Positions 10,101 through 31,623 of a stretch of 64,000 nucleotides of DNA are shown one piece after another. The number at the start of each line of letters is the position of its first letter. Positions within the stretch are counted from its first letter, which is position 1. Source of the stretch: DATDCY01 sp031406795 [NCBI: Candidatus Rokuibacteriota bacterium] (GTDB lineage Bacteria; JAUVQV01); the NCBI GenBank assembly GCA_031406795.1, contig JANOHV010000005.1, forward strand, positions 1 to 64,000, written 5' to 3'. A model generated the notes under the pieces. That model was not told the DNA's origin. It searched no databases and worked only from the letters and a program-made list of their open reading frames with translations. The position numbers and the translations under genes were made by a program.

Positions 10101-10674
10101 CCGCGTCATTTATCGGTGTGACGGTAATCAGCGCCGTCAACGAACCCGCCGGAATCACCGCGCTGCCGGAGAGAGCCGTGTAATCGCTTCCTGCCGTCGC
10201 CGTTCCCCCGACCGTGTAGCCAACTGTCAGCGCCGCAGTCGTCGCTCCGGTGCGCGTCAGCGTATACTGCCCCGTCGTCGGCCCGACTTCCGTGGCCGTC
10301 GCATCCGTCGCCGCAAGCGTCACGGTCGGCAAAGCTACCGCTCCGGGATCAGCCGCATTCCCCGGATAAGTCAGTGCGGCGATCTCGGCCTGATTGGTGA
10401 TGCCATCGCCGTCCGAATCGAGCAGATTGATGGCCGTGAAGCTGTGGCCCGCTGAGGCGTATGCGGCCCCGTAGGGGTTGCGTGCCGAGGTGGACACGTT
10501 CGCAGTGGTATGGCAGATCAGGCAACCATCCAGCTTCGACCCCACCGCCGCCGGATAGGCCGTTCTAAATGCCGTCCGATATCCCGATGACGCCGCCGCC
10601 GTGCCGGCCAACGCCAGCACCCCGACCAACGCCGCGGACAACAACGTTTTCCAACCCCTGCTCTTCACGCCCAT
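7120..10674 (-). CDS. Giant secreted protein: CxxCH N-terminus, seven Calx-beta domains, FG-GAP-like C-terminus
   Basis: A 1184-residue protein from the chosen ATG at 10674, which has GGAGGAGGGG just upstream. A signal peptide (residues about 8-28) is followed by CLICH (51-55), a single c-type haem-like motif, and a DSDGDGITNQAE calcium-binding loop. Next come seven Calx-beta domains of about 112 residues (nucleotides roughly 10330 to 7950), each opening with VTIAATD and TATE and containing GSDY, IPAG and SDETVVVTL. The C-terminus has six repeats beginning DFDGDGRDDIGCYYPPGGNW (7930 to 7120). Calx-beta and FG-GAP-like modules bind calcium and occur in adhesins and surface proteins, so a surface role is inferred. 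An upstream in-frame ATG at 10803 also has a strong ribosome-binding site and would add 43 residues before the signal peptide. Confidence 0.85.
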   Translation of the reverse strand: MGVKSRGWKTLLSAALVGVLALAGTAAASSGYRTAFRTAYPAAVGSKLDGCLICHTTANVSTSARNPYGAAYASAGHSFTAINLLDSDGDGITNQAEIAALTYPGNAADPGAVALPTVTLAATDATATEVGPTTGQYTLTRTGATTAALTVGYTVGGTATAGSDYTALSGSAVIPAGSLTALITVTPINDAAVESDETVVVTLSANAAYTLGAAASASVTIQSEDVVLPTVTIAATDPTATEAGTTTGQFTLTRAGATTAALTVSYLAGGTATAGSDYTALLGSVVIPAGALTATVTVTPINDTAVEPDETVVVTLGAGATYTVGAAASATVTIQSDDVVLPTVTIAATDPTATELGTTTGQYTLTRTGLTTAALTVSYTIGGTATAGSDYAALSGSAVIPAGSLTALVTVTPIDDALAEIDETVVATLSAGAAYAVGTAASATVTIQSDELSALPVVTIAATDSTATEAGTTTGLFTLTRTGATTAALTARYTVAGTAAAGNDYTALSGSVVIPAGSLTAMLTVTPINDATVEADETVIVTLSANAAYNVGAAASATVTIQSDDLPAVTIAATDATATEAGMTTGQYTVTRTGATTAALSVSYTVGGTAAAGSDYLALPGSVVIAAGAATVAVTVTPIDDAAIETSETVIATLGASATYTVGAAASATVTIQSDDLVPPTVAIAATDPTATEAGTTAGQFTLTRTGVTTGALTVSYTVGGTATAGSDFAALPGSVVIPAGSLAALVTVTPIDDAAVEPDENVVVTLSASGAYLVDAAASASVTIQSDDVALPPAVPVVTIAATVPTITEGGTTPGVFTVTRTGDTGAALLVDFTVISTANPGGDYVPLDVSVTIPAGSATGTITVTPLDNGVCESSESVVVTLGESPAYALGAPASAIVTIQEDRDCVASHPIRRNDFDGDGRSDIGCYYPAGGNWYGFNSTAGFWEKQLGITGAIPVTGDFDGDGASDIGHYRAGNGSWNIIKSAEGLWKAQFGYAGTIPVTGDFDGDGRSDIGVYHPDSGSWSIDMSLLGLWQTQFGFPGTIPVVGDFDGDGRDDIGCYYPAGGNWYVFKSSEGFWQTQFGFAGTIPVVGDFDGDGRDDIGCYYPPGGDWYVFESTNGFWQTKFGFAGTEPVVGDFDGDGRDDIGCYYPPGGNWYIFKSSEGFWQTQFGFEGTIPLGGTLR

Positions 10675-11132
10675 TTCCCCCTCCTCCACTTTGTCGAGAC
10701 CAAAACTGAAGGTTCGGCCTTCTCGGTCAGGCCGCTTCATCCCGCCTAGATTCGCCAAAGCCAGCCGCACTCCACCACTGACTCCGCTCCAATTGCATCT
10801 CATGGCCATATCCCTCCTGAAATTCTAATGTAAAGGTAGTCAGACCTGTGCCTCAGGGCTGTGACGAATGTCACCTTTCAGGCGCAGGGCAAGGGGAAAC
10901 GCGAGGCGAATCAAGAGCGCTAAGACATTGATACTGCAGTTTAATTCAATATTCGCCAATTGCTCTTCGGCGCGACGGGCTCATGCTCCCGGATGAGGGG
11001 CGCGAATCCTGACCAGAATCGCTTCGAACTGGCGGATGACCGTGGCAGGCGATCGTCTTGCGACGGGGCGGGGAGGGTCCAGACCTCGAATCCGTGCCAA
11101 AGTGCGCTGGCCGGGACGGCAATGGCGGGAGG
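10675..11132. other. Gene-free stretch: leader and control region of the Calx-beta gene, and truB 3' flank
   Basis: These 458 bases contain the alternative start at 10803 with AGGAGGG, an AT-rich patch (10815-10835) with -10-like TACATT/TAGAAT on the minus strand, and a CRP-type palindrome at 10860-10875. From about 10900 to 11132 I see nothing convincing; the segment lies downstream of truB and has no clear terminator. Confidence 0.5.
10860..10875. promoter_or_regulatory. CRP/FNR-family operator candidate
   Basis: TGTGA, six bases (cgaatg), TCACC. This fits the CRP half-site spacing TGTGA-N6-TCACA with one mismatch, and the core GTGAC-GAAT-GTCAC is a perfect palindrome. It is centred about 40-50 bases upstream of the -10-like bases of the Calx-beta gene, a position suited to activation. 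Which family member binds cannot be told from the sequence. Confidence 0.55.
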
Positions 11133-12056
11133 CTACGGCTCCTTGAAAACCCTCAGGAATTTGAGCGGCGCTCCCGGCGCAAGCAGCCTGGCCACCGCCA
11201 ACAGCCGTCCCGCAGCGTCGACGAGCTTGACAGTCGCCCCAGGCGCAAGATCCGAGCCACCGCTGACCGGACGCAGGGTGGGTGCCCGGCCATCCATTAC
11301 ACCGCGAGCCTCGCGCTCGGCGAGCATCACGCCCGGGAGGTTGGCCAGCGCGTCGGCCAACCGGATGAGCGGAGGAGCCGCTCCGGGCGGCAGTGCGGCC
11401 AGGTCCGCGATGGTCAGTGCTTTCTCGAGCCGGAAGGGTCCGATTGCGGTCCGGGAGAGCGCGGCCAGATGCGCGGCGCTGCCGCAGCGCACCCCCAGGT
11501 CGCGGATCAGCGTGCGCACGTACGTCCCGGAACCGACACGTGCGACGAATTCCGCCTCCGGCGGACGCCAGGCCACCAGGCGCATCTCGCTGACCTCGAT
11601 GCGGCGGGAGGCCCGCTCCGTCTGCTCGCCGGCGCGGGCCAGATCGTAGAGCCGCCGGCCGCCGACCTGCACGGCGGAGTACATCGGCGGTTCCTGCAGC
11701 GACTCGCCGAGGAACGCCGCCATCTCCGCCTCGACCTGCCTCGCGCTCAGCTGCCCCCACGGCGCCGTCCGGATCGACGCGCCCGCCGCGTCCTGGGTGT
11801 CGGTCTCGGAACCGAAACGCGCCACACCGACGTACTCCTTCGCGAGATCGGCGAGATAGGGCACGAGCTTCGCCGCCTCGCCAAGCAGCACCAGCAGCAG
11901 CCCGGAGGCAGCAGGGTCGAGGGTGCCCGCATGTCCGGCCTTGACCCACCCGAGCTGGCGCCGCAGCTCCTGAAGCGCCTGGTTCGAGCTCGGTCCGACC
12001 TCCTTGGCGAACAGGAGCACCCCATGCAGATCGTCGCGTTCAGGCCTCTTCGCCAT
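11133..12056 (-). CDS. truB: tRNA pseudouridine-55 synthase
   Basis: A 307-residue TruB, which makes pseudouridine 55 in the T-loop of tRNAs. The catalytic motif GHAGTLDPAASGLL with its essential Asp is near residue 45. The KEYVGVARFGSETDT, PPMYSAVQVGGRRLYDLAR and SGTYVRTLIRDLG segments and a C-terminal PUA-like region follow. The ATG at 12056 lies inside the end of the upstream regulator gene (17-base overlap), so the two are translated from one transcript. truB is more often found with rbfA and rpsO; here it closes the heat-shock/two-component run. Confidence 0.95.
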   Translation of the reverse strand: MAKRPERDDLHGVLLFAKEVGPSSNQALQELRRQLGWVKAGHAGTLDPAASGLLLVLLGEAAKLVPYLADLAKEYVGVARFGSETDTQDAAGASIRTAPWGQLSARQVEAEMAAFLGESLQEPPMYSAVQVGGRRLYDLARAGEQTERASRRIEVSEMRLVAWRPPEAEFVARVGSGTYVRTLIRDLGVRCGSAAHLAALSRTAIGPFRLEKALTIADLAALPPGAAPPLIRLADALANLPGVMLAEREARGVMDGRAPTLRPVSGGSDLAPGATVKLVDAAGRLLAVARLLAPGAPLKFLRVFKEP

Positions 12057-13446
12057 CGGGCGCCTCCGCGCCGCCCAGACCGTGCTCGCGCAACTTGGAA
12101 TAGAGGAGTTTGCGGGAAATGCCCAGGGCGCGCGCCGCCTGGCTCTTGTTGCCCCCGTGCCGGGCCATCGCCGCCGCGACCACCGCTTTCTCGACTTCCG
12201 CGAGCGGCAGGTCCCGCCCGGAGAGATCGGCGAACGGCCCCGCGGACCCGGCTGCCGGACGCACCTGCGGCGGCAGGCTCGCAGCCTCCAGCAGCGGCCC
12301 GCGTCCCACAACGACCCCGCGTTCGATCGCGTTCTCCAACTCGCGCACGTTTCCCGGCCAGTCGTGCGCGCCCAGCAGTTCCAGGGCCGCCCCGGAAATC
12401 CCGTCGAAGGTCTTGCTCTCCCGGCGGGCGAACCGCTCGAGGAAGAACGCCGCCAGCAGCGGGATGTCCTCTCGCCGCTCGCGCAGCGGCGGCATCGTGA
12501 CCTCGACGACGTTGATGCGGTAGTAGAGGTCCTCGCGGAACCTTCCGGACCTGATCTCTTCCCCGAGGTTCCGGTTGGTCGCCGCCACCAGCCGGAAGTC
12601 CGTCGCGACGCGCCGCGTCCCGCCGAGACGCTGCACCTCCTTCTCCTGCAGGACGCGCAGCAGCCGCACCTGCAGTTCCGGGGAGCACTCGCCGATCTCG
12701 TCGAGGAAGACGGTGCCGCCATCGGCCAGTTCGAACTGCCCCGGCTTCGCCCCCGCCGCTCCGGTGAAGGCGCCCTTCTCGTACCCGAACAATTCGCTCT
12801 CGAGCAGCTGCGCGGGCAGCGCGCCGCAGTTGAGGCTCACGAAAGGACCCGCCCGCCGGGGGCTCGCCTGGTGAATGGCACGCGCCGCCAGCTCCTTGCC
12901 CGTGCCACTCTCCCCCTGGACGAGAACCGCGGCCTGGGAATCGCCGACGACCGCGAGAAAAGCCCGCAACTCCTCCATGCGCCGGGAGCGCCCGATGAGC
13001 TCGGAGGCCCCGGCCTCCCCCAGCCGCTCGCGCAGCGTGCGATTCTCCTCCTCGAGCGAGCGTTTCTCCAGCGCGCTGCGCACCAGCGCGCGCCACTGCT
13101 CCAGGTCGGCGGGCTTGGTCAGGAAGTGGTAGGCGCCCTCCCGAAGCGCCTGTACCGCCGTGTCGACGCTCCCGAAAGCGGTGAGCATGACGACCGGAAC
13201 CTCGGGACGCGCCGCCCGGATCGCGCGGAACAGACCGAGCCCTTCGACGTCGGGGAGAACGAGGTCCAGGACCACGAGTCCGAGCCGCGGCTCGCCCTTC
13301 GCGAGCGCCCGCGCCCGCTCGCCGGTGGTCGCGGTGACAACCGGGATACCATCCTCGCGCAGCAGCGCGCTGTACATCTGCAAGGCACTCTGCTCGTCGT
13401 CGACGAGGAGAACCTTCCACGGGCAACCGGGCTTCGTCTCAGTCAT
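12040..13446 (-). CDS. Sigma-54-dependent response regulator, NtrC/AtoC family
   Basis: A 468-residue regulator with three domains. The receiver (residues about 10-125) has the phospho-acceptor Asp61 in VVLDLVLPD. The AAA+ domain has Walker A GESGTGKE at 178-185 and the sigma-54 contact loop GAFTGA at 225-230. A Fis-type helix-turn-helix sits at the C-terminus (NKSQAARALGISRKLLY). It activates sigma-54 RNA polymerase when phosphorylated, presumably by the histidine kinase encoded 61 bases upstream. Target promoters are not evident in the window. Confidence 0.93.
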   Translation of the reverse strand: MTETKPGCPWKVLLVDDEQSALQMYSALLREDGIPVVTATTGERARALAKGEPRLGLVVLDLVLPDVEGLGLFRAIRAARPEVPVVMLTAFGSVDTAVQALREGAYHFLTKPADLEQWRALVRSALEKRSLEEENRTLRERLGEAGASELIGRSRRMEELRAFLAVVGDSQAAVLVQGESGTGKELAARAIHQASPRRAGPFVSLNCGALPAQLLESELFGYEKGAFTGAAGAKPGQFELADGGTVFLDEIGECSPELQVRLLRVLQEKEVQRLGGTRRVATDFRLVAATNRNLGEEIRSGRFREDLYYRINVVEVTMPPLRERREDIPLLAAFFLERFARRESKTFDGISGAALELLGAHDWPGNVRELENAIERGVVVGRGPLLEAASLPPQVRPAAGSAGPFADLSGRDLPLAEVEKAVVAAAMARHGGNKSQAARALGISRKLLYSKLREHGLGGAEAPDGEEA

Positions 13447-13507: not shown

Positions 13508-15511
13508 TCACCCTGCGGACTCGATCCCCGGCAGCCAGACCCGAAACACCGCTCCCCCACCCGGACGGTTTGCCGCGGTGATGCGCCCGTCGTGTTTCTC
13601 CACCACCCCCCTGGCAATCGAGAGGCCGAGCCCGGTCCCCCCGCGCTTGGTCGTCCGAAATGGCTCGAAGATCACCGGGAGCAGCCGGGGCTCGATCCCC
13701 GGGCCGTCGTCCGCAATCGCGATCGTCACCCCCCGGTCGGCGTGGCGGACGGCGCTCACGGCGATGCGTCCGCCTTCGCCGCCAGCCTCGGCCGCGTTGC
13801 GCACGAGATTCTCGAAGACCTGCCGCAACTGAAAAACGTCCCCCCGCACCCAGAGCCCCTGCGCCGGCGCGCTCAGTTCGAGGCCCGCGCCGGCAGGTTC
13901 GACCCCGTTCCGGCCCTCGCCGAACTCGCGCAGACTCAGCGCGAGATCGATCGGCACCAGGTGCGGCCGCTGCTCGCCGCAGGCGAACAGCACGTCGCGG
14001 ATGAAGCGCTCGCCGCGGGCGACCTCGGTTTCGACCACCCCGAGCACCGTCTCGCCGGGCTGCCCGCCGAACTGGCGGCGCAGGACCGCGGTGGCGCCGC
14101 GGATGACATTGAGCGGGTTGCGCAGTTCATGAGAGACCACCGCCGCCATCCGCCCGAGCGCCGCCAGCCGCTCCTGCAGCCCGACACGTTCGCGCAGGCG
14201 CGCCTGCTCGACCGCCAGGGCCGTCTGGCCGGCGATCGCGGCGCAGAAGGCGAGGTCCTCCGAGGACCAGATCTCGCCGCTCGACTTCGCACCGAGGAGG
14301 CATCCCCCGAGCAGCCCGTCGTGCCCCACGACCGGGATCGCCAGCTCGAACGCGCCCGCGGCGGCCAGGCGCCTCGGTCCCGTCAGACCCGCGAGCAGCT
14401 GCCCGGCGGCCTCGGCGTCGACTCCCGCCGTCCCCGTCCCCGCCGCCGTGAGAAACGCCCCGTCCGCGTGGCGCAGGACCAGCCCGCTCTCCGGGTGCGC
14501 GTGCAGCCACCCCCGCTCCCAGGCGGCCTGCCAGAGATCGCTCTCGCTCTCGAGGCCGCACAAGACTTCGGCGAAGGCCTCGCCCCGCGCGCGCATCTGG
14601 GCGCGCGAGCGGAAGAAGGTCTGGTCGAGACGCTCCTGCAAGGACGACTTGAGGGGCCCGACTGCCAGGGCAACAGCGAGCGCCGGCAGCATCGGCAGCA
14701 GCACGGAGCCGGCGAAGACGGCGTCCTGAAACCAGACCTGGAGCCCGAGCACCAGCGCGAAGTAGACCACCGTCAGCAGGAACGTCAGCGTCGAGTAGAG
14801 CATCCCGGCCCGAAAGAGGACCTGAACGTCGAGGAGACGGTGGCGGGCGATCGTCACGGCGATGACGCCGACGTAAGCGGCCGAGGCGATGTTGCCGAGC
14901 GGCAGGAACGCGATCCCCCACAGCGGCAGGAAATTGGTCAGGCTCGCGATGCCGAGCAGCAGGTTGGCCGCGAGCAGGTACTGGGCCTGCGTGCGCCGGC
15001 CGTGATCGCGCGTCGTCCGCACCTCGCGCGCCAGCAGCGTCGTGGAGATCGCGAGATAGGCGAGAAAGTAGCTGACAAAGAGCGGGTAGAGCGCCCCCGG
15101 GGTGCCGTACCAGCCGAACCAGAGCCGTCTCCAGCCGGCAAGGTAGCCCGGCCCGACGCTGACGACGATCAGCAGGCCCGCCCAGGCCCCGAACCCGATC
15201 AGCAGCGGGTGCGAGCGGCGCCGGCCGAGGAAGATGAAGAAGAAGAGCAGCGCCAGGAAGGGCATGACGATGATCGGCGGCTGCAGCAGCCGGTCCACCC
15301 GGCCGGCGATCTGACCGTCCCGGAGCGTGAAGAGCAGGAAGACATCGAGGTTCCACAGGGCGACCGCGATGTTGAAGGCCGCGAAACTGCGCTGGAGCGC
15401 CGCGTTGCCCCGGCGGCTCCAGACGAAGATGCCGAGGGCGAGCGTGAACACGAAGCCGGCCAGCGGCAGAAGCGCGGGCCACCCGACCGACCAGCCGCTC
15501 GCTCCGGTCAT
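13508..15511 (-). CDS. Membrane sensor histidine kinase with multi-TM N-terminus and GAF-like domain
   Basis: A 667-residue protein. About eight hydrophobic segments span residues 10-290. A GAF-like domain follows, then the dimerisation/phospho-acceptor box SHELRNPLNVIRG near residue 460. The ATPase domain has the N-box (ENLVRNAAEAGG), G1 (DDGPGIEP) and G2 (GTGLGLSIARG). The signal is unknown; a multi-TM input region suggests a membrane or lipophilic cue. It starts 12 bases after the sigma-factor gene and is followed by its likely partner, the NtrC-type regulator. Confidence 0.9.
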   Translation of the reverse strand: MTGASGWSVGWPALLPLAGFVFTLALGIFVWSRRGNAALQRSFAAFNIAVALWNLDVFLLFTLRDGQIAGRVDRLLQPPIIVMPFLALLFFFIFLGRRRSHPLLIGFGAWAGLLIVVSVGPGYLAGWRRLWFGWYGTPGALYPLFVSYFLAYLAISTTLLAREVRTTRDHGRRTQAQYLLAANLLLGIASLTNFLPLWGIAFLPLGNIASAAYVGVIAVTIARHRLLDVQVLFRAGMLYSTLTFLLTVVYFALVLGLQVWFQDAVFAGSVLLPMLPALAVALAVGPLKSSLQERLDQTFFRSRAQMRARGEAFAEVLCGLESESDLWQAAWERGWLHAHPESGLVLRHADGAFLTAAGTGTAGVDAEAAGQLLAGLTGPRRLAAAGAFELAIPVVGHDGLLGGCLLGAKSSGEIWSSEDLAFCAAIAGQTALAVEQARLRERVGLQERLAALGRMAAVVSHELRNPLNVIRGATAVLRRQFGGQPGETVLGVVETEVARGERFIRDVLFACGEQRPHLVPIDLALSLREFGEGRNGVEPAGAGLELSAPAQGLWVRGDVFQLRQVFENLVRNAAEAGGEGGRIAVSAVRHADRGVTIAIADDGPGIEPRLLPVIFEPFRTTKRGGTGLGLSIARGVVEKHDGRITAANRPGGGAVFRVWLPGIESAG

Positions 15512-15523
15512 CGGGGGCGGATT

Positions 15524-16360
15524 TCAGTCGAGAAAGTCCGCGAGGTGCCGGCTGCGGGCCAGCCGCTGGAGCTTCTTCTTCGCCTTTTTTTCGATCTGGC
15601 GGATCCGCTCGCGCGAGAGCCCGAGTTTCGTGCCGACCTCCTCGAGCGTCATCGTCTCCCCGGTCACGATGCCGAAGCGCAGTTCGAGCACCTCGCGCTC
15701 GCGCGGCGCCAGATCGCCGAGCAGGCCGGCGATTTCGGTGCGCAGCGAGCTCTCGAGCAGGTCGTGGTCCACGGCGGGAGCGTCCTCGTCGGCCATCAGA
15801 TCCATGTAGGCCGTCTCGGAGTCCTCGGTAATCGGGCTGTCGAGGGAGACGGGGCGGCGGGCCACGCGCTGGATCTCCTCGACTTCGCGCAGTTTGACGC
15901 CGAGCGCGTCGGCCAGCTCCTTGGAGGTTGGCTCGCGATCGTGCATCTTCGTGAGCTCCTCGGTCTTGGTGCGGATCTTGTACAGCAGCCCGGCCTGCTT
16001 GAGCGGCAGGCGCGTCGGGCCGCTCTGCTCGGCGAGCATCTGCATGATCCCCTGGCGAATCCACCAGACGGCGTAGGAGATGAACTTGACGTTGCGCGCG
16101 GGGTCGAAGCGTCGCGCCGCCTGCAGCAGACCGATGTTGCCCTCGTTGATCAGATCCAGCAGCGAGGGGCCGGCGCCCGAGAAACGGTTGGCGACCTTCA
16201 CGACGAAGCGCAGATTCGCCTCGACCAGGCCCTGGATGGCTTTCTGGTCCCCTTTGAGGGCGAGCTTGCCGAGGCGGATCTCCTCCTCGCGGGGGATCAT
16301 CGGGATCTTGGAGATCTCGCGCAGGTACGTCCCGAGCGACGAAGGGCTGTCAACCGCCAT
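15524..16360 (-). CDS. Sigma-70 family RNA polymerase sigma factor (RpoD/RpoH/RpoS-like, lacks region 1.1)
   Basis: A 278-residue sigma factor with region 1.2/2 (RFDPARNVKFISYAVWWIRQ), region 3 and region 4 (EEVGTKLGLSRERIRQIEKKA). The absence of region 1.1 marks it as an alternative group 2/3 factor, not the housekeeping one. The start is taken at the ATG 16360, which has GGGGGAGG 6 bases upstream; an in-frame ATG at 16384 lacks a ribosome-binding site. It overlaps the end of hspR by 11 bases and so is part of the dnaJ-hspR operon, suggesting a heat-shock or stress role; this is inference from context. Confidence 0.9.
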   Translation of the reverse strand: MAVDSPSSLGTYLREISKIPMIPREEEIRLGKLALKGDQKAIQGLVEANLRFVVKVANRFSGAGPSLLDLINEGNIGLLQAARRFDPARNVKFISYAVWWIRQGIMQMLAEQSGPTRLPLKQAGLLYKIRTKTEELTKMHDREPTSKELADALGVKLREVEEIQRVARRPVSLDSPITEDSETAYMDLMADEDAPAVDHDLLESSLRTEIAGLLGDLAPREREVLELRFGIVTGETMTLEEVGTKLGLSRERIRQIEKKAKKKLQRLARSRHLADFLD

Positions 16361-16832
16361 CGCGTCCTCCCCCGGCGCGCTCATGGGGGCGCCGCAACGT
16401 GGCGCGCGGGCCGACGCGCACCAGCGCGGTGCGCGAACGCTGCAGCTCGACCTCGCGCTTCATCTCGCGGCGCACGAACTCCAGCGCCTCGGCCAGCTCA
16501 GCCTGCATGCGCTCGAGCTTGCGCCGCATCTCGATCACGACCTCGACGCCGGCCAGGTTGACCCCCAGGTCGCGCGTCAGGTGCAGGATCCGCCGGACGG
16601 TGTCCACATCGGCCTCCGAGTACAGGCGGGTACCGCCGCGGGTGCGCCGGGGCCGCACATACCCCTCGCGCTCGTAGAGGCGCAGGGTCTGGGGGTGAAC
16701 GCCGAGCAGTTCGGCGACCACACTGATCATGTACAGCGGGGTCTCCCGGTCCGCCCCTTGAGCGCGCGCACCGGCCAGGTCGGCGACCTCCGCGGGCGCG
16801 GCGACCTTGGGGCGTCGTCCGCGCGGGCTCAC
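16350..16832 (-). CDS. hspR: MerR-family heat-shock repressor
   Basis: A 160-residue protein whose core PLYMISVVAELLGVHPQTLR, then LYEREGYVRP and RTRGGTRLYSEADVD, is the HspR version of the MerR helix-turn-helix, followed by a coiled-coil (residues about 100-135). HspR represses dnaK/dnaJ/clpB-type operons by binding HAIR sequences, usually with DnaK as co-repressor. The GTG start (GTGA) overlaps the dnaJ stop. A HAIR-like operator is present upstream of dnaJ at 18087-18107, so autoregulation is likely. Confidence 0.9.
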   Translation of the reverse strand: MSPRGRRPKVAAPAEVADLAGARAQGADRETPLYMISVVAELLGVHPQTLRLYEREGYVRPRRTRGGTRLYSEADVDTVRRILHLTRDLGVNLAGVEVVIEMRRKLERMQAELAEALEFVRREMKREVELQRSRTALVRVGPRATLRRPHERAGGGRDGG

Positions 16833-24147: not shown

Positions 24148-26073
24148 TTACGGGAGGATTCGTCCGCGGTCCATGGTGACGACGCGGTCGGCGTCCTTCG
24201 TGATCTCACGTTCGTGTGTCACCATCGCGATCGTCACGCCGCGACGGTGCAACTCGCGAAAGAGGCCCATCACCTCCTGCTCGGTCTCGACGTCCAGGTC
24301 CCCGGTCGGCTCGTCGGCGAGAATCAGCTGCGGGTCGAGGATGAACGCCCGTGCGATCGCCACCCGGCGTTGCTGCCCGCCGGAGAGCTGGCCCGGGTAG
24401 GCGTCGATCTTGTCGGCGAGCCCGACGAGCCCCAGCAGCCGCCGGCCCTCTTCCTCGACACCCGGCGGCGGCGCCGGCGAGAAGGCCGCCGGCAACAGCA
24501 CGTTTTCCAGCGCCGTCAGCGTCGGCACGAGGCTTGCGAATTGGAAGATGAAGCCGATCGAGCGGTTTCGCACCGCGGCGAGACGGGCCTCGTCGAGACG
24601 GGCGACATCCTCTCCGGCGAGCAGGATTTCGCCGTGAGTCGGCCGCGTCAGCCCGCCGATCAACGAGAGCAGCGTCGTCTTCCCCGAGCCGGAGTGCCCG
24701 AGGATCGCCAGAAACTCGCCGCGGCGGATCTCCAGCGAGAGCCCCTCGATTGCCGCGACGTGCCCGTCGGCCGCCGGATAGCGCTTCTCCAGCTCGCGGA
24801 CGCGCACGAGCAAATCCGCGGGGAGGGGCGGGCAGGGCCCGGGAATCCCCGGGGGGCATACCGAAGGCGACTCGCCGGTGTCCTTGATGGCGTCGAGCGG
24901 GTCGATCCGGCTGACCCGCAGCACGGGCTGCAGGGCCCCGAGCACCGCGACGCCGACCGCCGCGCCGAGCCCGCCGGCGCCGATCGCCAGCAGCACCAGA
25001 GGCGAGAAGTACACCGGGAAACGCGTCACCTCGTCCACGGCGCGCACCGCCGGCACGCTCAAGGCCGCGCCCGCTGCGATGCCGACCAGTCCGCCGATCA
25101 ACCCCGTCGCGACGGCCTCGGCGAGAAAGAGCCGGATCACGTGGCCGCGGGTCGCCCCGAGCGAGCGCAGAATGCCCACCTCTCGCGTGCGCTCGTTCGC
25201 GACCGCGGAGAAGACCGAGGCCACGACCAGCAGCGCGAGGATCGAGCCCACGGCGACGGTGAGCAGGAAGATCTGCAGCGTCACCCGGAAGAAGCGCGTC
25301 AGCCGGCTGCCGATCTCGCCGCGGGTGATCGCCTTGACGTCGAGGTTTTCGCGCTCGATCGTCTTGGCGACGGTGTCCGGGTCGAAGCCGCGGCGCAACG
25401 CGACAAAAGCGACGGAGACCTCGTCGGGGGAGACCACGTAAGGCGTGAGCTTCTTCTCGATGGCCTCGCGCACGTCCACCTCGCGCAGAAAGACCGTGTT
25501 GTCGAGCGGCGTGCCCGTCACGTCGAGAGTGGCGGCGACGTTGAATTTCATCCCCAACAGCCAGGTCTCCCGGCTCATCTCGATGGAGCTGATGCCCTCC
25601 ACCTTGCCGCCGAGCACCACCTCGTCCTTGCCGAGTTTGCGCTTGAGCCGCTGTTCGATCCAGGGGGTGATGACGAAGTCGGTCTCCGGGTCGAAGGCGA
25701 CGATCCGGGCCGAGGAGATGCTGCAGCAGACCCCCGCCAGCGTGGCGAGGTAGGTGTGCGCAGTGACCTTCTCGATGGCCGGCATCTCACGCAGCCGCGC
25801 CAGCATGTCGCGTTTGATGTGGAGGCTGAGCCGGTCGGTCGCGAAGAGGAACTCCTCCGGATTGGTGACCGCGCCGGGGGGCGCGACCATGATGTCGCCG
25901 CCCATCCGCCGCAGGGTGAGCTGAATGCCCTGTCCGAGCCGAAGCAGGGAGGCGAGCGAGAAGATGACGAGCGTCGCGAGCAGCGCGATGGAGAGCAGCA
26001 GCGAAAGCGTCCGGAATGGCCGGCGGCGCAAGTTGCGCACGGCGATGGCGCCGAGCCCGCGCACGTGCGCCAT
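24148..26073 (-). CDS. ABC transporter fusion: FtsX/MacB-type permease followed by ATPase
   Basis: A 641-residue single chain. Residues 1-380 are an FtsX-like permease: TM1 at about 20-45, a periplasmic domain, then three TM helices with the ERTREVGILRSLGATRGHVI hallmark. After a Pro-rich linker (residues about 385-400) comes a complete LolD/MacB-type ATPase: Walker A GHSGSGKTT near 460, Q-loop, LSGGQQRRVAIARA, and Walker B LILADEPTGDLD. The permease-then-ATPase order is the reverse of MacB. MacB-type systems do not import but transmit force to periplasmic partners. The start at 26073 has GAGAGG upstream. Divergent from the NosL-like gene, which recalls NosDFYL-type assemblies. Confidence 0.88.
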   Translation of the reverse strand: MAHVRGLGAIAVRNLRRRPFRTLSLLLSIALLATLVIFSLASLLRLGQGIQLTLRRMGGDIMVAPPGAVTNPEEFLFATDRLSLHIKRDMLARLREMPAIEKVTAHTYLATLAGVCCSISSARIVAFDPETDFVITPWIEQRLKRKLGKDEVVLGGKVEGISSIEMSRETWLLGMKFNVAATLDVTGTPLDNTVFLREVDVREAIEKKLTPYVVSPDEVSVAFVALRRGFDPDTVAKTIERENLDVKAITRGEIGSRLTRFFRVTLQIFLLTVAVGSILALLVVASVFSAVANERTREVGILRSLGATRGHVIRLFLAEAVATGLIGGLVGIAAGAALSVPAVRAVDEVTRFPVYFSPLVLLAIGAGGLGAAVGVAVLGALQPVLRVSRIDPLDAIKDTGESPSVCPPGIPGPCPPLPADLLVRVRELEKRYPAADGHVAAIEGLSLEIRRGEFLAILGHSGSGKTTLLSLIGGLTRPTHGEILLAGEDVARLDEARLAAVRNRSIGFIFQFASLVPTLTALENVLLPAAFSPAPPPGVEEEGRRLLGLVGLADKIDAYPGQLSGGQQRRVAIARAFILDPQLILADEPTGDLDVETEQEVMGLFRELHRRGVTIAMVTHEREITKDADRVVTMDRGRILP

Positions 26074-26187
26074 CAGCGCGCCCTCTCGCAGATCATCATG
26101 CGGGGAACTTTCACACACGGGCCGCGGACCGTCAAGCGGGGACAGATTTTCGCTCGATCTTGCGCCGTCTTCCGGCATTCCCGAGCA

Positions 26188-26238
26188 GGCTGCGGGGTCC
26201 TGACGCTGCGGACCTCCCCTCCGCGCCACCCCTCCGCC
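26188..26238 (+). repeat. Dispersed repeat family F3, copy 1
   Basis: GGCTGCGGGGTCCTGACGCT, then GCGGACCTC, joined to CCTCCGCGCCACCCCTCCGCC. The same left and right arms occur at 58756-58862 with about 55 extra bases between them. It lies between the divergent ABC and NosL genes. Confidence 0.65.
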
Positions 26239-26345
26239 AGGTGCGTGCCATCTCCCCTGGCCTCTGCGTATCGAAAGGCTGTAGACTCTCCGTTGCGTGC
26301 CAATTGCAAACTGGCCGTTTCGGCCGACAACCGGGGAGGGCGACC

Positions 26346-26843
26346 GTGCGAAAGATCGGAACGACAATCGTGCTGGCAATCGTTCTGGCCTCGTTCATCA
26401 GCGGGGCGAAGGCCGGGGCGGCGGAGAAGGACATCGAGAAAATACCCTCCTGCCAGTACTGCGGCATGGATCGCACGAAGTTCGCCGCGACGCGCATGCT
26501 CGTCGAGTACGCCAACGGCACGACCATCGGCGTCTGCAGCATCCACTGCGCGGCCGTGGAACTGGCGCAGAGCTTCGGCAAGGAGATCAACGCACTGAAG
26601 GTCGCGGACTACCGCAATGGCCGGCTGATCGACGCCGAGAAAGCGCTGTGGGTGGTCGGTGCCGGCCTGCCGGGGGTGATGGCCGCGAAAAGCCGCGTCG
26701 CCTTCGCCGACCGGGCACAGGCCGAGGCCTTCCGCAAGGACAAGGGCGGCGAGATCGCCGACTTCAACGCGGCCATCACCTCGACCTACTGCGACATGTG
26801 GCCTGACACGCAGGCAATCCGCTCGCGGCGAACGAAGCACTGA
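26346..26843 (+). CDS. NosL-like periplasmic metal-binding protein
   Basis: A 165-residue protein with a signal peptide (residues 5-25) and the NosL signature CQYCGMD (36-42), in which Cys, Cys and Met form the Cu(I) site in known NosL. The SIHCAAVEL and CDMW segments add possible ligands. NosL delivers copper to nitrous oxide reductase, but no nosZ is in the window, and NosL-like proteins also occur with other cytochromes. GTG start, with GGGGAGGG five bases upstream. A lipobox cysteine is missing, so it is soluble or anchored by an uncleaved signal. Confidence 0.85.
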   Translation: MRKIGTTIVLAIVLASFISGAKAGAAEKDIEKIPSCQYCGMDRTKFAATRMLVEYANGTTIGVCSIHCAAVELAQSFGKEINALKVADYRNGRLIDAEKALWVVGAGLPGVMAAKSRVAFADRAQAEAFRKDKGGEIADFNAAITSTYCDMWPDTQAIRSRRTKH

Positions 26844-26863: not shown

Positions 26864-27256
26864 CTAGCGGATGCCGCCCTGCTCGGACACGACCTTGACG
26901 GCGGAGACGAAATACCCCGTCTCCCCGAAGCAGGTCGTCGGGACGCCGACATGCTGCTCGTAGCTGACGGCGACCTTGGCCCCGATCGAATCGTTGATCT
27001 GCCGGGCGACCGCTTCGCTGGGCACGGTGAAGGGAAACTTCTCCGCGACGGTCCCGGGCATGGAGACAAGCGCCATCTCGCCCTCCCAGGTCTTGCACAG
27101 CCACCCCTTCTTCGACAGCTTCTGGACGTAGCCCGCGCGCTCGCCGGAGGAGAAACTCCAGTGGAGCACGATCCAGGTGTAGGCGGCGGCGGCCAGCGCC
27201 GGCAGGAACAGGACGATCACCAACCACTTCAGCATCTTCACCCCGGCGATTCCCAT
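26864..27256 (-). CDS. Small single-TM periplasmic protein, conserved hypothetical
   Basis: A 130-residue protein with one N-terminal membrane anchor (residues 9-28), then SSGERAGYVQKLSKKGWLCK, TWEGEMALVSMPGTV and VSYEQHVGVPTTCFGETGYFV. Two cysteines (residues about 54 and 109) could pair. I recognise this as a recurring conserved protein of unknown function, not a named enzyme. The ATG has AGGAGGG 5 bases upstream. It lies 67 bases downstream of the rhodanese cytochrome gene on the same strand, so probably co-transcribed. Confidence 0.75.
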   Translation of the reverse strand: MGIAGVKMLKWLVIVLFLPALAAAAYTWIVLHWSFSSGERAGYVQKLSKKGWLCKTWEGEMALVSMPGTVAEKFPFTVPSEAVARQINDSIGAKVAVSYEQHVGVPTTCFGETGYFVSAVKVVSEQGGIR

Positions 27257-27323: not shown

Positions 27324-29522
27324 CTATTTCTTCATCATCGGCGAGCGCTCCCAGGATACCCAGGAACCGTCGTGAACCGCAACGTTCGGGTAGCCGAGGT
27401 ACCTGAGCGCGAACCAGGCCCCGGCGGCCTGCTGTCCCGTGTTGCAGGTGACGATGATCCGCTTGTCTTTCGTGATCCCGCGGGATTCCAGCAGCCAGAC
27501 GAGCGCCTGCGGATCCTTGAAGAAGCCCTCGACGGTCCACAACCCCTGCACCGAGAGGTTCACGGTCCTGTCGATGTGCCCGGTCTGCACCGTGAGGGGG
27601 TGCTTCTGCAATCCCTGGTACTGGCCGACCGGGCGCACATCCAGCACGATCGTCCCCGGGTCCTGCAGCGCCGCGGCCGTCTGGCGGTTGTTCACGATGA
27701 CCGCGTTGTCGACGGCGGGGGTGAAAACGCGCGGCAGGGCCGGCGGCGGATCCCCGGCCACGAGGGGCAGCTTCGCCTCCTTCGTCCAGGCGTCAACCCC
27801 GCCATTGAGGACCGCCACATTGCCGTGGCCGAGCCGCTGCAGGGCGAAGGCCAGGAAGGGCGCCTCGAGCCCGCCTGCATCGTAGACCACCACGCGCAGG
27901 CTGGTGTCGATCCCGCGGCTGCCCAGCAGGACGGCAAGTTCCTCGGGCGCCTTCATGGTCATCGCCCGGGGCGTCGCATCGGGCGGGTGGCGCAGTTCGC
28001 CCTGGACATTGAAGGCCACCGCCCCCTCGATATGGCCCTTCTTGTAGGCGGCACCCGTGCGCGCATCGACTACGACCAGGGGCTCTTTCTTCTGCAGCAG
28101 CTCGTGCAGGGCCTCGGCCGAAACAAGCATCGCGGCATTCACCTGCACGACCGGGTTCTTGAAGGTGTCCTCGGCGCGCCTGGTCGGGATCTTGTCGTCG
28201 GCCACGACAACCGCCTTGTTCGCGCCCTTCTCGTAGTCGAGCAGGTCGCTCTCGGCGAGGAAGACCGAGCGTTCGCCGTGACAGTGGTTGCAGGAGACGT
28301 TCCGCCACGTCAACTTCTGGATGTTGTGCGGCGAGGCGCGCTTCCAGGTCGGAACGTTGTCGAAGGTCTTGAAGCCGTCCTTCCCGTAGAAGTCGAAGAC
28401 GTCCTTGTCGGAGGGTTCGTGCCGCACGAGGATCCACTTCTCGGTGAGCCCCGTCCCCGGGTAGTTCAAGCCGATCTTGAAAGATTCGGTCTCCATCTGG
28501 TTCACGAAGTAGACGACACCCTGGTCGTCCTTGCCGGTGTGGCAGCTGTAGCAGTTCACGTAGTCCTGGGAGTGGCAGACCTGGCACTGCACCTTGCCGG
28601 CGTGGTCCTGGTGCTGTTGCGTCTTCCCGAGGTCCTTCTCGTGGCACCCCGTGCACTTGGGCAGCTGCGGCAACTGGTAGCGCGAGGTCAGCCCCTCGCC
28701 GGAGGCGTGCATCTCCCCCGCCGGGTGACAGGCCATGCAGTCCATTGCCAGCTTCGCCAGGTGCGCGTCCCCGATGCCGCGGCTGCCGAAATACTCGTCC
28801 CCCACGCGGCTGCCATGGCAGGCGGTGCACTGGTTCACCATGTCGGGCTTCTTGTTGAAGACGTGACCGTTCACCAGCCCGCTCTTGGAGAACTTGGGCC
28901 GGCTCACGTGGCACTGGCCGCAGCTGGAGTGGCAGGGGGTGCAGTGGTTCTTGCGCCCCTGGTCGACCACCGCATCCCAGTTGTGGGGATCGTCGCCGGC
29001 GCGGGCCCGCATGACCTTCGTGAAGGTGGAGAGGGTCGCGTGCAGGGACGTCGCCCCCGTCTTCACCTCGTTCTCGTGGCATTCCGCACAGACGATCTTC
29101 TCGCTCTTGCCGAAGGGCGGAACCTCGGTGGGGTCCTTGACGACGCCCTTGTGGGACTCCAGGCGCTCGACGGCGACGGGGTTGCCCCCGTGGCACTCCG
29201 CGCAGGCCTTCTCACCGTGCTCCGTGGCGAAGAACTTCTGCGATATGAAGACCTTTTCCCATAGCTCCAACGGAGCTACCGATCCCCCTCAGCCCTTCCC
29301 CGCCTGGAGTGCGGAGACCGGCGGTGTCGGTACCTTGGCGGCCTCCGCCTTGAGCTTCTCGGCGTCGGTGTGGCAGGCGACACAGCTGGAGGCCGGCTTT
29401 GCTGCCGCAGCAGCGGCACACGTATCGGACGACAGCACGGCGGCGGCGGCCACGATGCTGACACCGAGCATTCGCCAAACACGCCATTGGTGCGAACGAG
29501 AACCTCCCTGACAATGCGTCAT
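27324..29522 (-). CDS. Eleven-haem c-type cytochrome with two rhodanese domains; in-frame UGA at codon 78
   Basis: Read from the ATG at 29522 (GGAGG just upstream) the frame is 732 residues with an in-frame TGA at 29291-29289. Before it: a signal peptide (about 13-41) and the first haem site CVACH (47-51). After it: ten more sites, including CAECH twice, CTPCH, CGQCH, CTACH, CMACH, CTGCH, CQVCH, CYSCH and CNHCH. Two rhodanese domains follow (about 430-545 and 570-732). The first lacks the active cysteine (YDAGGLE); the second keeps it (IVTCNTGQQ, near 693). Rhodaneses move sulfane sulfur, so a periplasmic sulfur redox enzyme is inferred. The part after the TGA has only a TTG start inside a hairpin, no ribosome-binding site and no signal peptide. 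It therefore needs UGA bypass (selenocysteine or readthrough), or it is broken, or there is a sequence error. Confidence 0.82.
29262..29291 (-). promoter_or_regulatory. UGA codon followed by a bacterial SECIS-like hairpin
   Basis: In the transcript: UGA (29291-29289), ten bases GGGGGAUCGG, then UAGCUCC-GUU-GGAGCUA (29278-29262), a perfect 7-bp stem with a 3-base loop whose first base is G. The loop begins 18 bases after the UGA. Published bacterial SECIS descriptions ask for a loop of 3-14 bases with a G in its first two positions, about 16-37 bases past the UGA; this fits. Function is unproven. Confidence 0.5.
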
Positions 29523-29928
29523 GCGTCCCTCCCTCTCGGTCTCCTGGCCAATCGCCCGGCGAGCCCGGCACCGGCTGCCGAATCGAACTCCGTTGAGGTC
29601 TCCAGTGCTTACCCTACCGAACCGCTCCCCGTCAATAGATAAAAGATTGAACAACCCGATATTCTAGGCGATTCAAGGCTGTCCAGCCGTTCGCCACAAA
29701 GATTATTTCTGCTCCCGGCGGAGGCCGAAGGAAACAGACCGTCCGGAATCGGCGCCGACCGCATGCTCCGGGAATTATCCGACACCGCTTCTTAATCCTT
29801 ATTCGTTGACAAACATTCACATTTTAGGTAACTAACCAACCCAATACTGGCAGTCGGCGTCGGGCATCTACGACATCCGGTCTGCCTGGAACAGGCAATT
29901 CACACCGTGCACTGGGGGGCGTTTGGGC
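29523..29928. other. Divergent gene-free stretch between the rhodanese cytochrome and the YedE gene
   Basis: 406 bases, markedly AT-rich at 29625-29665 and 29790-29850. TTGACA at 29806-29811 points towards the YedE gene, with 17 bases to a poor -10 (TAACTA, 29829-29834), 95 bases before its ATG. On the other strand AT-rich sequence near 29640-29660 could hold the cytochrome promoter. No ORF, RNA gene or long repeat is seen. Confidence 0.45.
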
Positions 29929-31623
29929 ATGAGTCGAAACAGTCGTTCTCTCGTTGTGGTTCTTCTCGTGTTGGTGTTCCTGAGCGTGCAAGGTCTGGCC
30001 GGGGTCGCTTCAGCGGCTGACAGCGGCGGCTATGGCTCCCCGTCGCCGGCCGCCACGCCAGCGCCAAGCTCGGGGGGTTACGGCTCGCCCGCGCCGGCGC
30101 CCGCGGCCTCGTCCGGCGGCTACGGCTCCCCGACCCCGGCACCCGTACCGGCAGCCTCATCCGGCGGCTACGGCTCCCCCGCGCCTGCGGCAGTCGCCGC
30201 TCCGGCGGCCAGTTCCGGCGGGTACGGTTCCACCGCCCCCGCAGCATCCGCCCCCGCGGCTTCCACTGGCGGCTACGGGTCTCCGGAACCGGCGGCGAAG
30301 TCCGCCCCCGCAGCGGTCGTCGAAAAGTCCAGGGCCGCAACGACGGTCGCGAAGCCGGGCGCCCCGGCAGCCCCGGCGACCACCAAGCCCGCGGCCGCGC
30401 CCGCGGCGCAGTCCGCCGTTCAAACCGCCACGCCGCCGGCCCCCGCCGCATCGGCCGGCTACGGCAGTCCCGCGGCGCCGGCCACGCCCGCAGCCCCGGC
30501 TCCCGTCGCCGCGCCGGTCGCGGCAGCCGCCCCGCAGCAGGGGAGCGGGCTGCCGCCGGTCAACTTCGGGTTTCTGATCACGGCGCTGCTCTGCGGCGGG
30601 CTGATGGGGTGGGCGCTTCAGCGCGGTCGTTTCTGCATGAACACCGCGTTCCGCGACACGATCTTCATCAAGGAGTTCGTCACCTTCCGGGCCTTCCTGC
30701 TCGCGCTGCTCGTCAGCATCATCGGCGCAAATCTGCTGAGCGACGGCGGCGTCATCGCGCTGAAGGCCCAGCCGTTCTGGCCGATCGCCCACATCCTCGG
30801 CGGGCTGCTCTTCGGCATGGGGATGGTGCTCGCCGGCGGCTGCGGCAGCGGCATCTGGTACCGGGTCGGCGAGGGGCAGATCGCCTCCTACATCGCGGTC
30901 GGCGGCTTCTTCAGCGGCATCGCGATCATGCAGGACGGTCTGTTGAAGCCCTTCTACGAATGGTCGAAGTCAGTCATGCTCATCGGCAGCGAAGGCCCCT
31001 ACAAACTCTCGCAGATCTTCGGGGGCAGCACCGGCGGCAAGTGGGCTTTCATCGCCGTCGTCGCGGTCGCGATCTTCATCGCCATCTGGCCGGAGAAGCC
31101 TTTCGCGATCAAGAAGGGCAAGGGCTACTACTGGTCGGTGACGGGCGTGTTCATCGGCCTGATCTCCGTGCTCTCCCTCTGGGCCTCCGCGAAGTTCGGC
31201 GACCTGCACGACTCCGCGCGCGGCCTCTCGTTCACGACGCCGACCCGCGAACTGTTCTTCACGCTCTTCACCGGTGAGTCGCGCTCGAGCTTCTTCCAGA
31301 ACTACGCGCTCGGCGGCCTCAAGATCACCTGGGGCGTGATCTTCATCATCGCGGTGCCGATCGGGGCCTACCTCTCGGCGCGCGGCCTCAAGGAGTTCTC
31401 CTGGAAGACCCCCCGCGACCCGAAGGAGATCCTCGCCGTGATGCTCGGCAGCGTGATGATGGGCTTCGGCAGCTCGCTCGCGCTCGGCTGCAACGTCGGG
31501 CAGGCAATCACCGGCCTCTCGACGCTGTCGGTGGGCAGCCTCTTCGCGACCCTCGCCATCATCGGCGGCAACTGGATCATGGTCTACTTCAAGTTCATCA
31601 AGCCGATGCAGGACATGGAGTAG
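29929..31623 (+). CDS. YeeE/YedE (TsuA-type) permease with a signal peptide and GGYGSP-repeat N-terminus
   Basis: A 564-residue protein. An N-terminal signal (residues 10-28) is followed by about 175 low-complexity residues rich in Ala, Pro, Ser and Gly with seven GYGS(P/T) units (29 to ~205). A full YeeE/YedE membrane domain of about nine helices follows. The three cysteines of the thiosulfate transporter TsuA family are present in GRFCMNTAFRD, LAGGCGSGIWYR and LGCNVGQ, so thiosulfate or another sulfur compound is the likely substrate. Typical family members have no such extension. ATG at 29929 after a GGGGGG patch. Divergent from the rhodanese cytochrome. Confidence 0.88.
   Translation: MSRNSRSLVVVLLVLVFLSVQGLAGVASAADSGGYGSPSPAATPAPSSGGYGSPAPAPAASSGGYGSPTPAPVPAASSGGYGSPAPAAVAAPAASSGGYGSTAPAASAPAASTGGYGSPEPAAKSAPAAVVEKSRAATTVAKPGAPAAPATTKPAAAPAAQSAVQTATPPAPAASAGYGSPAAPATPAAPAPVAAPVAAAAPQQGSGLPPVNFGFLITALLCGGLMGWALQRGRFCMNTAFRDTIFIKEFVTFRAFLLALLVSIIGANLLSDGGVIALKAQPFWPIAHILGGLLFGMGMVLAGGCGSGIWYRVGEGQIASYIAVGGFFSGIAIMQDGLLKPFYEWSKSVMLIGSEGPYKLSQIFGGSTGGKWAFIAVVAVAIFIAIWPEKPFAIKKGKGYYWSVTGVFIGLISVLSLWASAKFGDLHDSARGLSFTTPTRELFFTLFTGESRSSFFQNYALGGLKITWGVIFIIAVPIGAYLSARGLKEFSWKTPRDPKEILAVMLGSVMMGFGSSLALGCNVGQAITGLSTLSVGSLFATLAIIGGNWIMVYFKFIKPMQDME

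What the first reader, a model, noticed from the sequence alone, without database searches (positions are those of the whole stretch)
27324..29522. In-frame UGA followed by a SECIS-like hairpin inside an 11-haem rhodanese cytochrome
Seen: from the ATG at 29522, signal peptide and haem site CVACH are in the same frame as ten more haem sites and two rhodanese domains, interrupted only by TGA at 29291-29289. Ten bases later comes a perfect 7-bp stem with loop GUU (29278-29262). The loop begins 18 bases from the UGA and starts with G. Known: bacterial SECIS elements need a loop with G in its first two positions about 16-37 bases past the UGA. Inference: either a selenoprotein, a UGA readthrough, a recent nonsense mutation, or a sequence error. 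The downstream part alone has no usable start or signal peptide, so it could not be matured as a c-type cytochrome. A Sec in a Gly-rich linker instead of an active site would be unusual.
Basis: partly seen in the sequence, partly recalled or inferred. Interest (0 to 1): 0.85.

Follow-up and report, generated by a model that had tools for sequence, protein, structure and literature searches.

The report
Selenocysteine multihaem cytochrome with rhodanese partner
A stop codon inside a bacterial electron-transfer gene is almost certainly read as the rare amino acid selenocysteine, because the same codon, the same RNA hairpin and a sulfur-transfer partner recur in dozens of distantly related genes.

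Summary
Frame 29522-27324(-) has 11 CxxCH haem sites and two rhodanese domains, broken only by UGA (29291-29289) between haems 1 and 2. The hairpin alone is weak evidence: 14.6% of codon positions in 15 window genes pass the bacterial SECIS constraints. Relatives decide. In L001's phylum 36 of 47 cytochrome-part matches carry the in-frame UGA; in Chloroflexota 12 of 12 listed ones do. With the window that is 49 genes; 48 have a GUU loop 17 nt downstream. Pairing and loop exceed synonymous-codon expectation. One homologue has Cys. SelB or tRNA-Sec, or both, were found in 44 of 45 genomes with these genes. A rhodanese is adjacent or fused in 48 of 49 UGA genes but in 2 of 9 UGA-less ones. The core resembles octahaem tetrathionate reductase (Z 9.3). 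Most likely: an unlisted selenoprotein family whose Sec links rhodanese-bound sulfur (or selenium) to a haem wire. That chemistry is inferred. The window's own genome, Sec genes and reads could not be checked.

The parts
27324..29522 (-). whole gene: 732-residue multihaem cytochrome fused to two rhodanese domains, UGA at codon 78
29526..29534 (-). Shine-Dalgarno-like AGGGAGGGA upstream of the ATG at 29522
   Evidence: sequence
29370..29384 (-). haem site 1, CVACH (codons 47-51), the only one before the UGA
29289..29291 (-). in-frame UGA, proposed selenocysteine 78, motif GKG-U-GG; an in-frame UGA in the same segment of 48 further genes
29262..29278 (-). SECIS-type hairpin, 7-bp stem with GUU apical loop at 29271-29269, 17 nt after the UGA
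28278..29204 (-). haem sites 2-11 (codons 107-415); the matching part of relative L105 resembles octahaem tetrathionate reductase
   Evidence: fold match made on L105, not on the window protein
27780..28121 (-). rhodanese domain 1 (codons 468-581), YDAGG in place of a Cys active-site loop
   Evidence: sequence
27342..27689 (-). rhodanese domain 2 (limits approximate, about codons 612-727) with loop TCNTGQQ, Cys693 at 27446-27444
29923..31623 (+). divergent neighbour: TsuA/YeeE-type sulphur (thiosulfate) transporter domain with a long N-terminal extension
   Evidence: PF04143, 1.5e-65; below the TsuA model cut-offs
26864..27256 (-). 130-aa ORF of unknown family just downstream
   Evidence: no NCBIfam or Pfam match at the limits used
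24148..26379 (-). FtsX-type permease fused to an ABC ATPase, downstream on the same strand

Best explanation
The gene encodes a selenoprotein. UGA78 is decoded as selenocysteine by SelB and tRNA-Sec, directed by the GUU-loop hairpin 17 nt downstream. The product is an exported multihaem c-type cytochrome whose N-terminal haem is followed by a Gly-rich arm carrying the Sec. Its haem core looks related to octahaem tetrathionate reductase. It works with a rhodanese, here fused to its C-terminus. Proposed mechanism (inferred, about 0.4 on its own): the rhodanese cysteine picks up sulfane sulfur (thiosulfate, polysulfide or similar, possibly a selenium analogue) as a persulfide; the Sec on the arm attacks it, and the haem chain supplies electrons to reduce and release it (or, in reverse, takes them up). 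Shown by comparison: UGA, hairpin, conservation, co-occurrence with Sec machinery in relatives and with rhodanese. Inferred: Sec in this very host, substrate, direction, the Sec-persulfide step. The confidence given is for the selenoprotein reading.
For: In-frame UGA in 36 of 47 cytochrome-part matches from 245 genomes of L001's phylum and in 12 of 12 listed from 400 Chloroflexota genomes. 49 genes with the window; the codon is followed by Gly-Gly codons in 47 of 49. GUU loop at the same distance in 48 of 49; the exception, L049, has its own 8-bp stem with GGU loop. Stem columns on 35 sequences: 78.8% of cells paired against 30.6-46.5% when slid; covariation 0.414 against at most 0.162 slid, 0 of 500 shuffles. 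Over 48 sequences 82.7% against 31-46% (the row labelled -1 there is the structure). Synonymous-codon control on 48: 5.8 of 7 pairs against 3.7 expected, GUU in 48 of 48 against 11% expected. Cys in L027. SelB over cut-off in 31 of 34 plus 11 of 11 genomes with UGA genes, tRNA-Sec in 28 of 34 plus 10 of 11, at least one of the two in 44 of 45. tRNA-Sec (anticodon TCA) lies upstream of the cytochrome operon in G107 and G112. Rhodanese adjacent or fused in 48 of 49 UGA genes against 2 of 9 UGA-less ones, Fisher p 9e-7, or 6e-6 without L036 (contig ends 252 bases behind the gene) and the duplicate L023 (not corrected for kinship). UGA-less genes need at least 5 changes on the tree. Fold match of L105 to 1sp3; profile match of 97.8% over 192 columns to TIGR04315 proteins. 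A sulphur-transporter gene diverges from the window gene.
Against: The window's own genome is not held, so its SelA, SelB, SelD and tRNA-Sec are untested; reads were not available. By my unbroken-stem rule only 12 of 37 hairpins tested pass the published -7.5 kcal/mol limit, because many stems have a mismatch. RNAalifold predicted no consensus structure on the 54-column alignment. Two of the five measures did not exceed shuffles (pairs changed on both sides: 105 of 500 shuffles as high; further pair types: 438 of 500). MFE exceeds synonymous shuffles only modestly (mean z -0.97, 20 of 48 under -1). G001 shows neither SelB nor tRNA-Sec (1.5 Mb). In Chloroflexota the Sec machinery is common anyway: of 21 other genomes 12 pass SelB and 17 the tRNA-Sec cut-off, so there it does not discriminate. 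One UGA gene, L114, has no rhodanese within 3 kb upstream and 6 kb downstream. Eight homologues replace Sec by residues other than Cys. In the window the first rhodanese domain lacks the Cys. Nothing shows the substrate; the operons also fit extracellular electron transfer or selenite/tellurite reduction.
Confidence: 0.93

Rival explanations
1. Ancestral selenoprotein, but in the window's own organism Sec decoding is lost and the gene is dying, or UGA is read through by another tRNA.
For: The host genome is not available, and loss of the UGA occurs in relatives.
Against: The window keeps a perfect 7-bp stem, the GUU loop, all 11 haem sites and an open frame to codon 732. Window genes with family matches end in TGA (3076-4371, 12040-13446, 13508-15511, 15524-16384, 53300-55672), so UGA is an ordinary stop there.
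Confidence: 0.04
2. Sequencing error or recent nonsense mutation at codon 78.
For: A single base change would explain the window taken alone.
Against: 48 other genes have an in-frame UGA in the same segment with a hairpin behind it.
Confidence: 0.01
3. Selenoprotein as proposed (a sub-reading of the best explanation), but the chemistry is selenite/tellurite reduction (Ext-like) or terminal reduction in extracellular electron transfer rather than sulfane-sulfur turnover.
For: The L058 operon of L001's phylum holds MerR, a rhodanese protein, a 396-aa protein without Pfam match, an 11-haem MtrC-domain-like cytochrome, a 17-haem protein with cytochrome b561 domain and an NrfH-like cytochrome; related gene orders recur in other contexts. 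Weak matches to ExtM in 9 of 28 members (best 2.3e-9, cut-off 800 bits). The Geobacter ext cluster pairs a rhodanese, a porin and a Sec cytochrome (PMC5877670, passages).
Against: 0 of 28 members match ExtKL at E 0.01. Chloroflexota loci show mainly rhodanese and, in nine loci, a gene family whose representative is a LysR regulator. The fold match is to tetrathionate reductase.
Confidence: 0.35
4. Selenoprotein as proposed (sub-reading), but the Sec is a metal ligand or haem-proximal redox relay and the rhodanese only repairs or supplies sulfur.
For: Sec follows haem 1 by 27 residues on a Gly-rich arm; Cys replaces it once.
Against: Rhodanese is missing at 7 of 9 UGA-less homologues, six of them with enough flanking DNA, which fits a direct partnership better.
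Confidence: 0.15

Closest known systems
ExtKL, Sec-containing 5-haem cytochrome of Geobacter (NF040886; GSU2937-GSU2936)
   Same: Multihaem cytochrome with one in-frame UGA, in a cluster with a rhodanese (ExtH) and other cytochromes (PMC1914089, PMC5877670: passages)
   Different: In ExtKL the N-terminal part holds five haem motifs and the C-terminal part resembles nothing characterised (PMC1914089, passage); here one haem precedes the UGA and ten follow in the window. 0 of 28 members match NF040886 at E 0.01
Octahaem tetrathionate reductase (OTR, TIGR04315, PDB 1sp3)
   Same: Fold match of the L105 model Z 9.3, rmsd 4.8, 272 residues over model residues 105-454, the only one of 126 chains with Z 2 or more; profile match 97.8% over 192 columns
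   Different: TIGR04315 proteins of the same phyla show 8 haem motifs in 26 of 29 rows (one row, L146, is a wrongly picked frame) and no in-frame stop in any of 19 and 16 listed matches. Our members hardly match the model (1 of 44, E 3.2e-5). The haem 1 and Sec arm lie outside the aligned range
GenBank-annotated 'tetrathionate reductase family octaheme c-type cytochrome' selenoprotein WP_331457571.1 (Table 1 of PMC13188914)
   Same: Listed as a Sec-containing multihaem cytochrome of the OTR family; could be a close relative
   Different: Its sequence and Sec position could not be read here; relation untested
Rhodanese-type selenoproteins (for example NF041203, TsoB NF045694)
   Same: Rhodanese domain in a selenoprotein; the partner rhodanese of L105 passes the NF041203 cut-off
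   Different: Here the rhodanese keeps Cys and the Sec lies in the cytochrome

Membership tests
bacterial selenoprotein with bSECIS | in-frame UGA conserved among homologues, with Cys homologues | tested here: met
   49 UGA genes and one Cys homologue
bacterial selenoprotein with bSECIS | loop 3-9 nt, stem 4-16 bp, G in first two loop positions, 16-37 nt from UGA, MFE at most -7.5 (PMC13188914, section 5 read) | tested here: met
   window: 3-nt GUU, 7-8 bp, 17 nt, -10.1; of 37 genes tested, window included, 12 pass the energy limit by an unbroken-stem rule; the 12 Chloroflexota genes were not put through that rule
bacterial selenoprotein with bSECIS | SelB and tRNA-Sec in the genome | tested here: inconclusive
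   window genome not held; relatives with UGA genes: SelB 42 of 45, tRNA-Sec 38 of 45, at least one 44 of 45
bacterial selenoprotein with bSECIS | Sec found in the protein | not testable with these tools
   needs mass spectrometry or 75Se labelling
ExtKL (NF040886) | sequence match to the family model | tested here: not met
   0 of 28 members at E 0.01
ExtKL (NF040886) | five haem motifs in the N-terminal part, none described after it (PMC1914089, passage) | tested here: not met
   one haem before the UGA, ten after it in the window
octahaem tetrathionate reductase TIGR04315 | score above the curated cut-off of 375 bits | tested here: not met
   1 of 44 members matches at E 1 or better, at E 3.2e-5
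octahaem tetrathionate reductase TIGR04315 | shared fold | tested here: inconclusive
   Z 9.3 to 1sp3 on the L105 model, 97.8% profile match over 192 columns; multihaem spacing can inflate both, and Z under about 13 can be common arrangement in helical proteins

The most novel reading that the evidence does not exclude
An old selenoenzyme class: a Sec-bearing arm on a multihaem wire takes sulfur (or selenium) from a partner rhodanese's persulfide and couples it directly to respiratory or extracellular electron transfer. It occurs in at least two bacterial phyla and is missing from the selenoprotein inventory that I could read.
Probability: 0.4. Interest if true: 0.9.

Novelty: new variant of a known kind. 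Interest (0 to 1): 0.82.

Why it matters
Standard gene callers would end or start these genes at the UGA and so lose the signal peptide and first haem; the proteins are likely split or overlooked in annotation (inference). The 2026 inventory of 119 prokaryotic selenoprotein families (PMC13188914, Table 1 read) lists no family with this haem arrangement that I could recognise; its nearest entries are named under Closest known systems, and one of them could not be inspected. Linking Sec to rhodanese and a haem chain gives a testable idea of how bacteria may couple sulfane-sulfur or selenium chemistry to respiration. It also shows that a Sec in a Gly-rich linker can be the conserved centre of a family.

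Tried and rejected
Own genome: not held. Only two phyla could be reached, through the genomes of L001 (phylum not named) and L002 (title Anaerolineae, class of Chloroflexota). PNPase identity (46-54% in nine of ten genomes) did not place the window's taxon; the cytochrome tree sets it beside the Chloroflexota genes on a long branch. Sequencing error, recent nonsense mutation and a general UGA reassignment are rejected for the reasons under the rivals. Hairpin statistics alone were rejected as proof. RNAalifold gave no consensus structure. AlphaFold of the window protein was poor (pLDDT 55); the 50 listed of its 456 Foldseek matches were nearly all rhodaneses. The L105 model was better (82); Foldseek found nothing at E 0.001 for it, and of the 126 chains realigned by VIA-align only 1sp3 scored. 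A viral-contig scan found no relative. The 10 listed of 249 plasmid records matched the rhodanese part. A codon-bias scan for other UGA-broken genes in the window gave nothing convincing, but it did not list the known case either, so it is insensitive.

Rows dropped and limits. L021 is the same gene as L001 and was left out. L054 (cut by a contig end) and L055 (my script took the wrong frame) were dropped, so 9 of the 11 UGA-less matches enter those counts. L022 and L023 are identical and share one context. L036 has only 252 bases behind it and L056 only 527 in front, so their missing rhodanese is weak evidence. In one search at most two candidates per genome were scored and the list was cut, so its count is a lower bound. 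The genomes used as 'without the family' were the first ones listed (20 of 196 unmatched; 21, ten of which had a rhodanese-part match), not a random draw. Alignment in the Gly-rich segment is uncertain for UGA-less rows. One search shows 25 of 46 families. In one search my index was off by one, so the row labelled -1 is the hairpin.

Literature: Haft's two Sec-family papers were not held. Searches behind 'not found in print', in the held library only. Of the papers found, I saw section 5 and parts 1-2 of section 7 of PMC13188914, and passages only of PMC5029168, PMC5877670, PMC11976967, PMC1914089, PMC9312934, PMC3971608, PMC9012536 and PMC3655542; a term search in PMC12013277 gave no hit for cytochrome or heme.

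Full report
What is there. The minus-strand frame from ATG 29522 to 27324 encodes 732 residues with 11 CxxCH sites and two rhodanese domains, interrupted once by UGA at codon 78. A Shine-Dalgarno-like AGGGAGGGA precedes the ATG. Haem 1 lies before the UGA, haems 2-11 after it.

The hairpin alone proves little. The 25-nt hairpin folds at -13.5 kcal/mol, but in this GC-rich DNA 14.6% of 9,040 codon positions in 15 window genes are followed by a structure meeting the bacterial SECIS constraints, and 6.3% by one as stable.

Relatives carry the case. The only strong genome contigs relative (L001, 36% identity) has an in-frame UGA at the equivalent place and a hairpin with different stem bases and the same GUU loop. 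In 245 genomes of its phylum, 47 of 55 listed matches cover the cytochrome part and 36 of these 47 carry an in-frame UGA. In 400 genomes of L002's phylum (Chloroflexota by its title), 12 of 12 listed cytochrome-part matches do; these include the window's nearest relative on the tree, L104. The protein alignment puts the UGA in one column in 36 of 48 rows, window included; L049's UGA lies a few residues away. Nine UGA-less rows could be judged: one has Cys (L027) and eight have Arg, Tyr, Gly, Asp, His or Ala in that column. None has UAA or UAG.

RNA-level selection. In 49 genes the GUU loop stands at the same distance in 48. Stem positions covary: 78.8% of cells paired against 30.6-46.5% in slid controls, covariation 0.414 against at most 0.162, 0 of 500 shuffles (35 sequences). 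Under synonymous re-coding with each gene's own codon usage, 3.7 of 7 pairs and an 11% GUU frequency are expected; 5.8 pairs and 48 of 48 are seen. Against this: two of five measures do not exceed shuffles (105 of 500 and 438 of 500 as high), MFE differs only modestly from synonymous shuffles (mean z -0.97), many stems contain a mismatch, 12 of 37 pass -7.5 kcal/mol by an unbroken-stem rule, and RNAalifold finds no consensus fold.

Decoding machinery. SelB scores over cut-off in 31 of 34 genomes with UGA genes in L001's phylum, 6 of 8 with only UGA-less members and 2 of 20 without the family; tRNA-Sec in 28 of 34, 8 of 8 and 1 of 20. In Chloroflexota SelB is in 11 of 11 and tRNA-Sec in 10 of 11, but 12 and 17 of 21 other genomes there also pass, so the association is informative only in the first phylum. 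Of the 45 genomes only G001 shows neither. In G107 the tRNA-Sec gene (anticodon TCA) lies about 0.3 kb upstream of the MerR gene that heads the cytochrome operon; in G112 it lies about 1.2 kb upstream of it, with two small ORFs between. The window's own genome is not held.

Partnership with rhodanese. A rhodanese is encoded next to, or fused with, 48 of 49 UGA cytochromes: C-terminal fusion in the window, N-terminal fusion in L103, usually the next gene elsewhere, sometimes the one before. The exception is L114. Of 9 UGA-less homologues, 7 show none (L036 with too little DNA behind it to be sure); the other two are the Cys homologue L027 and L057, whose nearby rhodanese belongs to the UGA paralogue L032. 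Fisher p is 9e-7, or 6e-6 without L036 and the duplicate L023, not corrected for kinship. The tree needs at least 5 changes between UGA and no UGA (bootstrap 5-6); since UGA rows surround the UGA-less ones, I read these as losses, so Sec and rhodanese seem to be lost together more than once (inference). Of 21 partner rhodaneses printed, 18 show a Cys-x-x-Gly loop by the pattern used.

What it resembles. The L105 model (pLDDT 82) aligns with Shewanella octahaem cytochrome 1sp3 at Z 9.3 over 272 residues, and the family profile matches TIGR04315 proteins at 97.8% over 192 columns. By sequence the family fails the TIGR04315 and ExtKL tests, and TIGR04315 matches in the same two phyla have no in-frame stop in any of 19 and 16 listed rows. 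The L058 operon adds MerR, more multihaem cytochromes, a cytochrome b561 domain and an NrfH-like protein. The window gene diverges from a sulphur-transporter gene.

How it likely works. Shown by comparison: conserved UGA, conserved hairpin, Sec machinery in relatives, rhodanese partnership. Inferred: the Sec, on a Gly-rich arm 27 residues after haem 1, exchanges with a rhodanese persulfide, and the haem chain carries the electrons. Substrate and direction are open; sulfane sulfur is favoured from rhodanese, transporter and fold, with selenite/tellurite or extracellular electron transfer as rivals.

Known or new. Table 1 of the 2026 inventory (PMC13188914, read) lists ExtKL, the GSU2204 family and a GenBank-annotated octahaem tetrathionate reductase-family cytochrome as multihaem-related selenoproteins. 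ExtKL is excluded by sequence and haem order; the GSU2204 family is described there as an outer-membrane beta-barrel protein, which does not fit. The last could not be inspected and may be a relative, so novelty is claimed as a new variant, not a new category. In NCBIfam of June 2026 the best cytochrome match over 44 members is E 3e-10 (ExtM; 25 of 46 families shown), so I saw no model that names this family.

Noticed in passing
window 29923-31623 (+): TsuA/YeeE-type sulphur transporter domain with about 217 residues of N-terminal extension, divergent from the cytochrome gene; a shorter Sulf_transp gene lies near the homologue in L073.
   Followed up: partly
window 24148-26379 (-): ABC exporter with the FtsX-type permease part first and the ATPase at the C-terminus in one chain.
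   Followed up: no
window 7120-10809 (-): 1,229-aa protein with seven Calx-beta stretches, FG-GAP repeats and a match below cut-off to a GEGP-motif dihaem family.
   Followed up: no
L103 (G257:C164): Sec cytochrome with rhodanese repeats fused N-terminally and a 4Fe-4S ferredoxin-type gene right behind it.
   Followed up: partly
L049/L082 (G107:C23): The UGA is shifted a few residues and has its own SECIS-like hairpin with GGU loop; tRNA-Sec lies upstream of the operon.
   Followed up: partly
L011/L059 (G086): A relative without Sec has Arg-Gly-Gly at the site, keeps a GTT at the loop position and shows no rhodanese nearby.
   Followed up: yes
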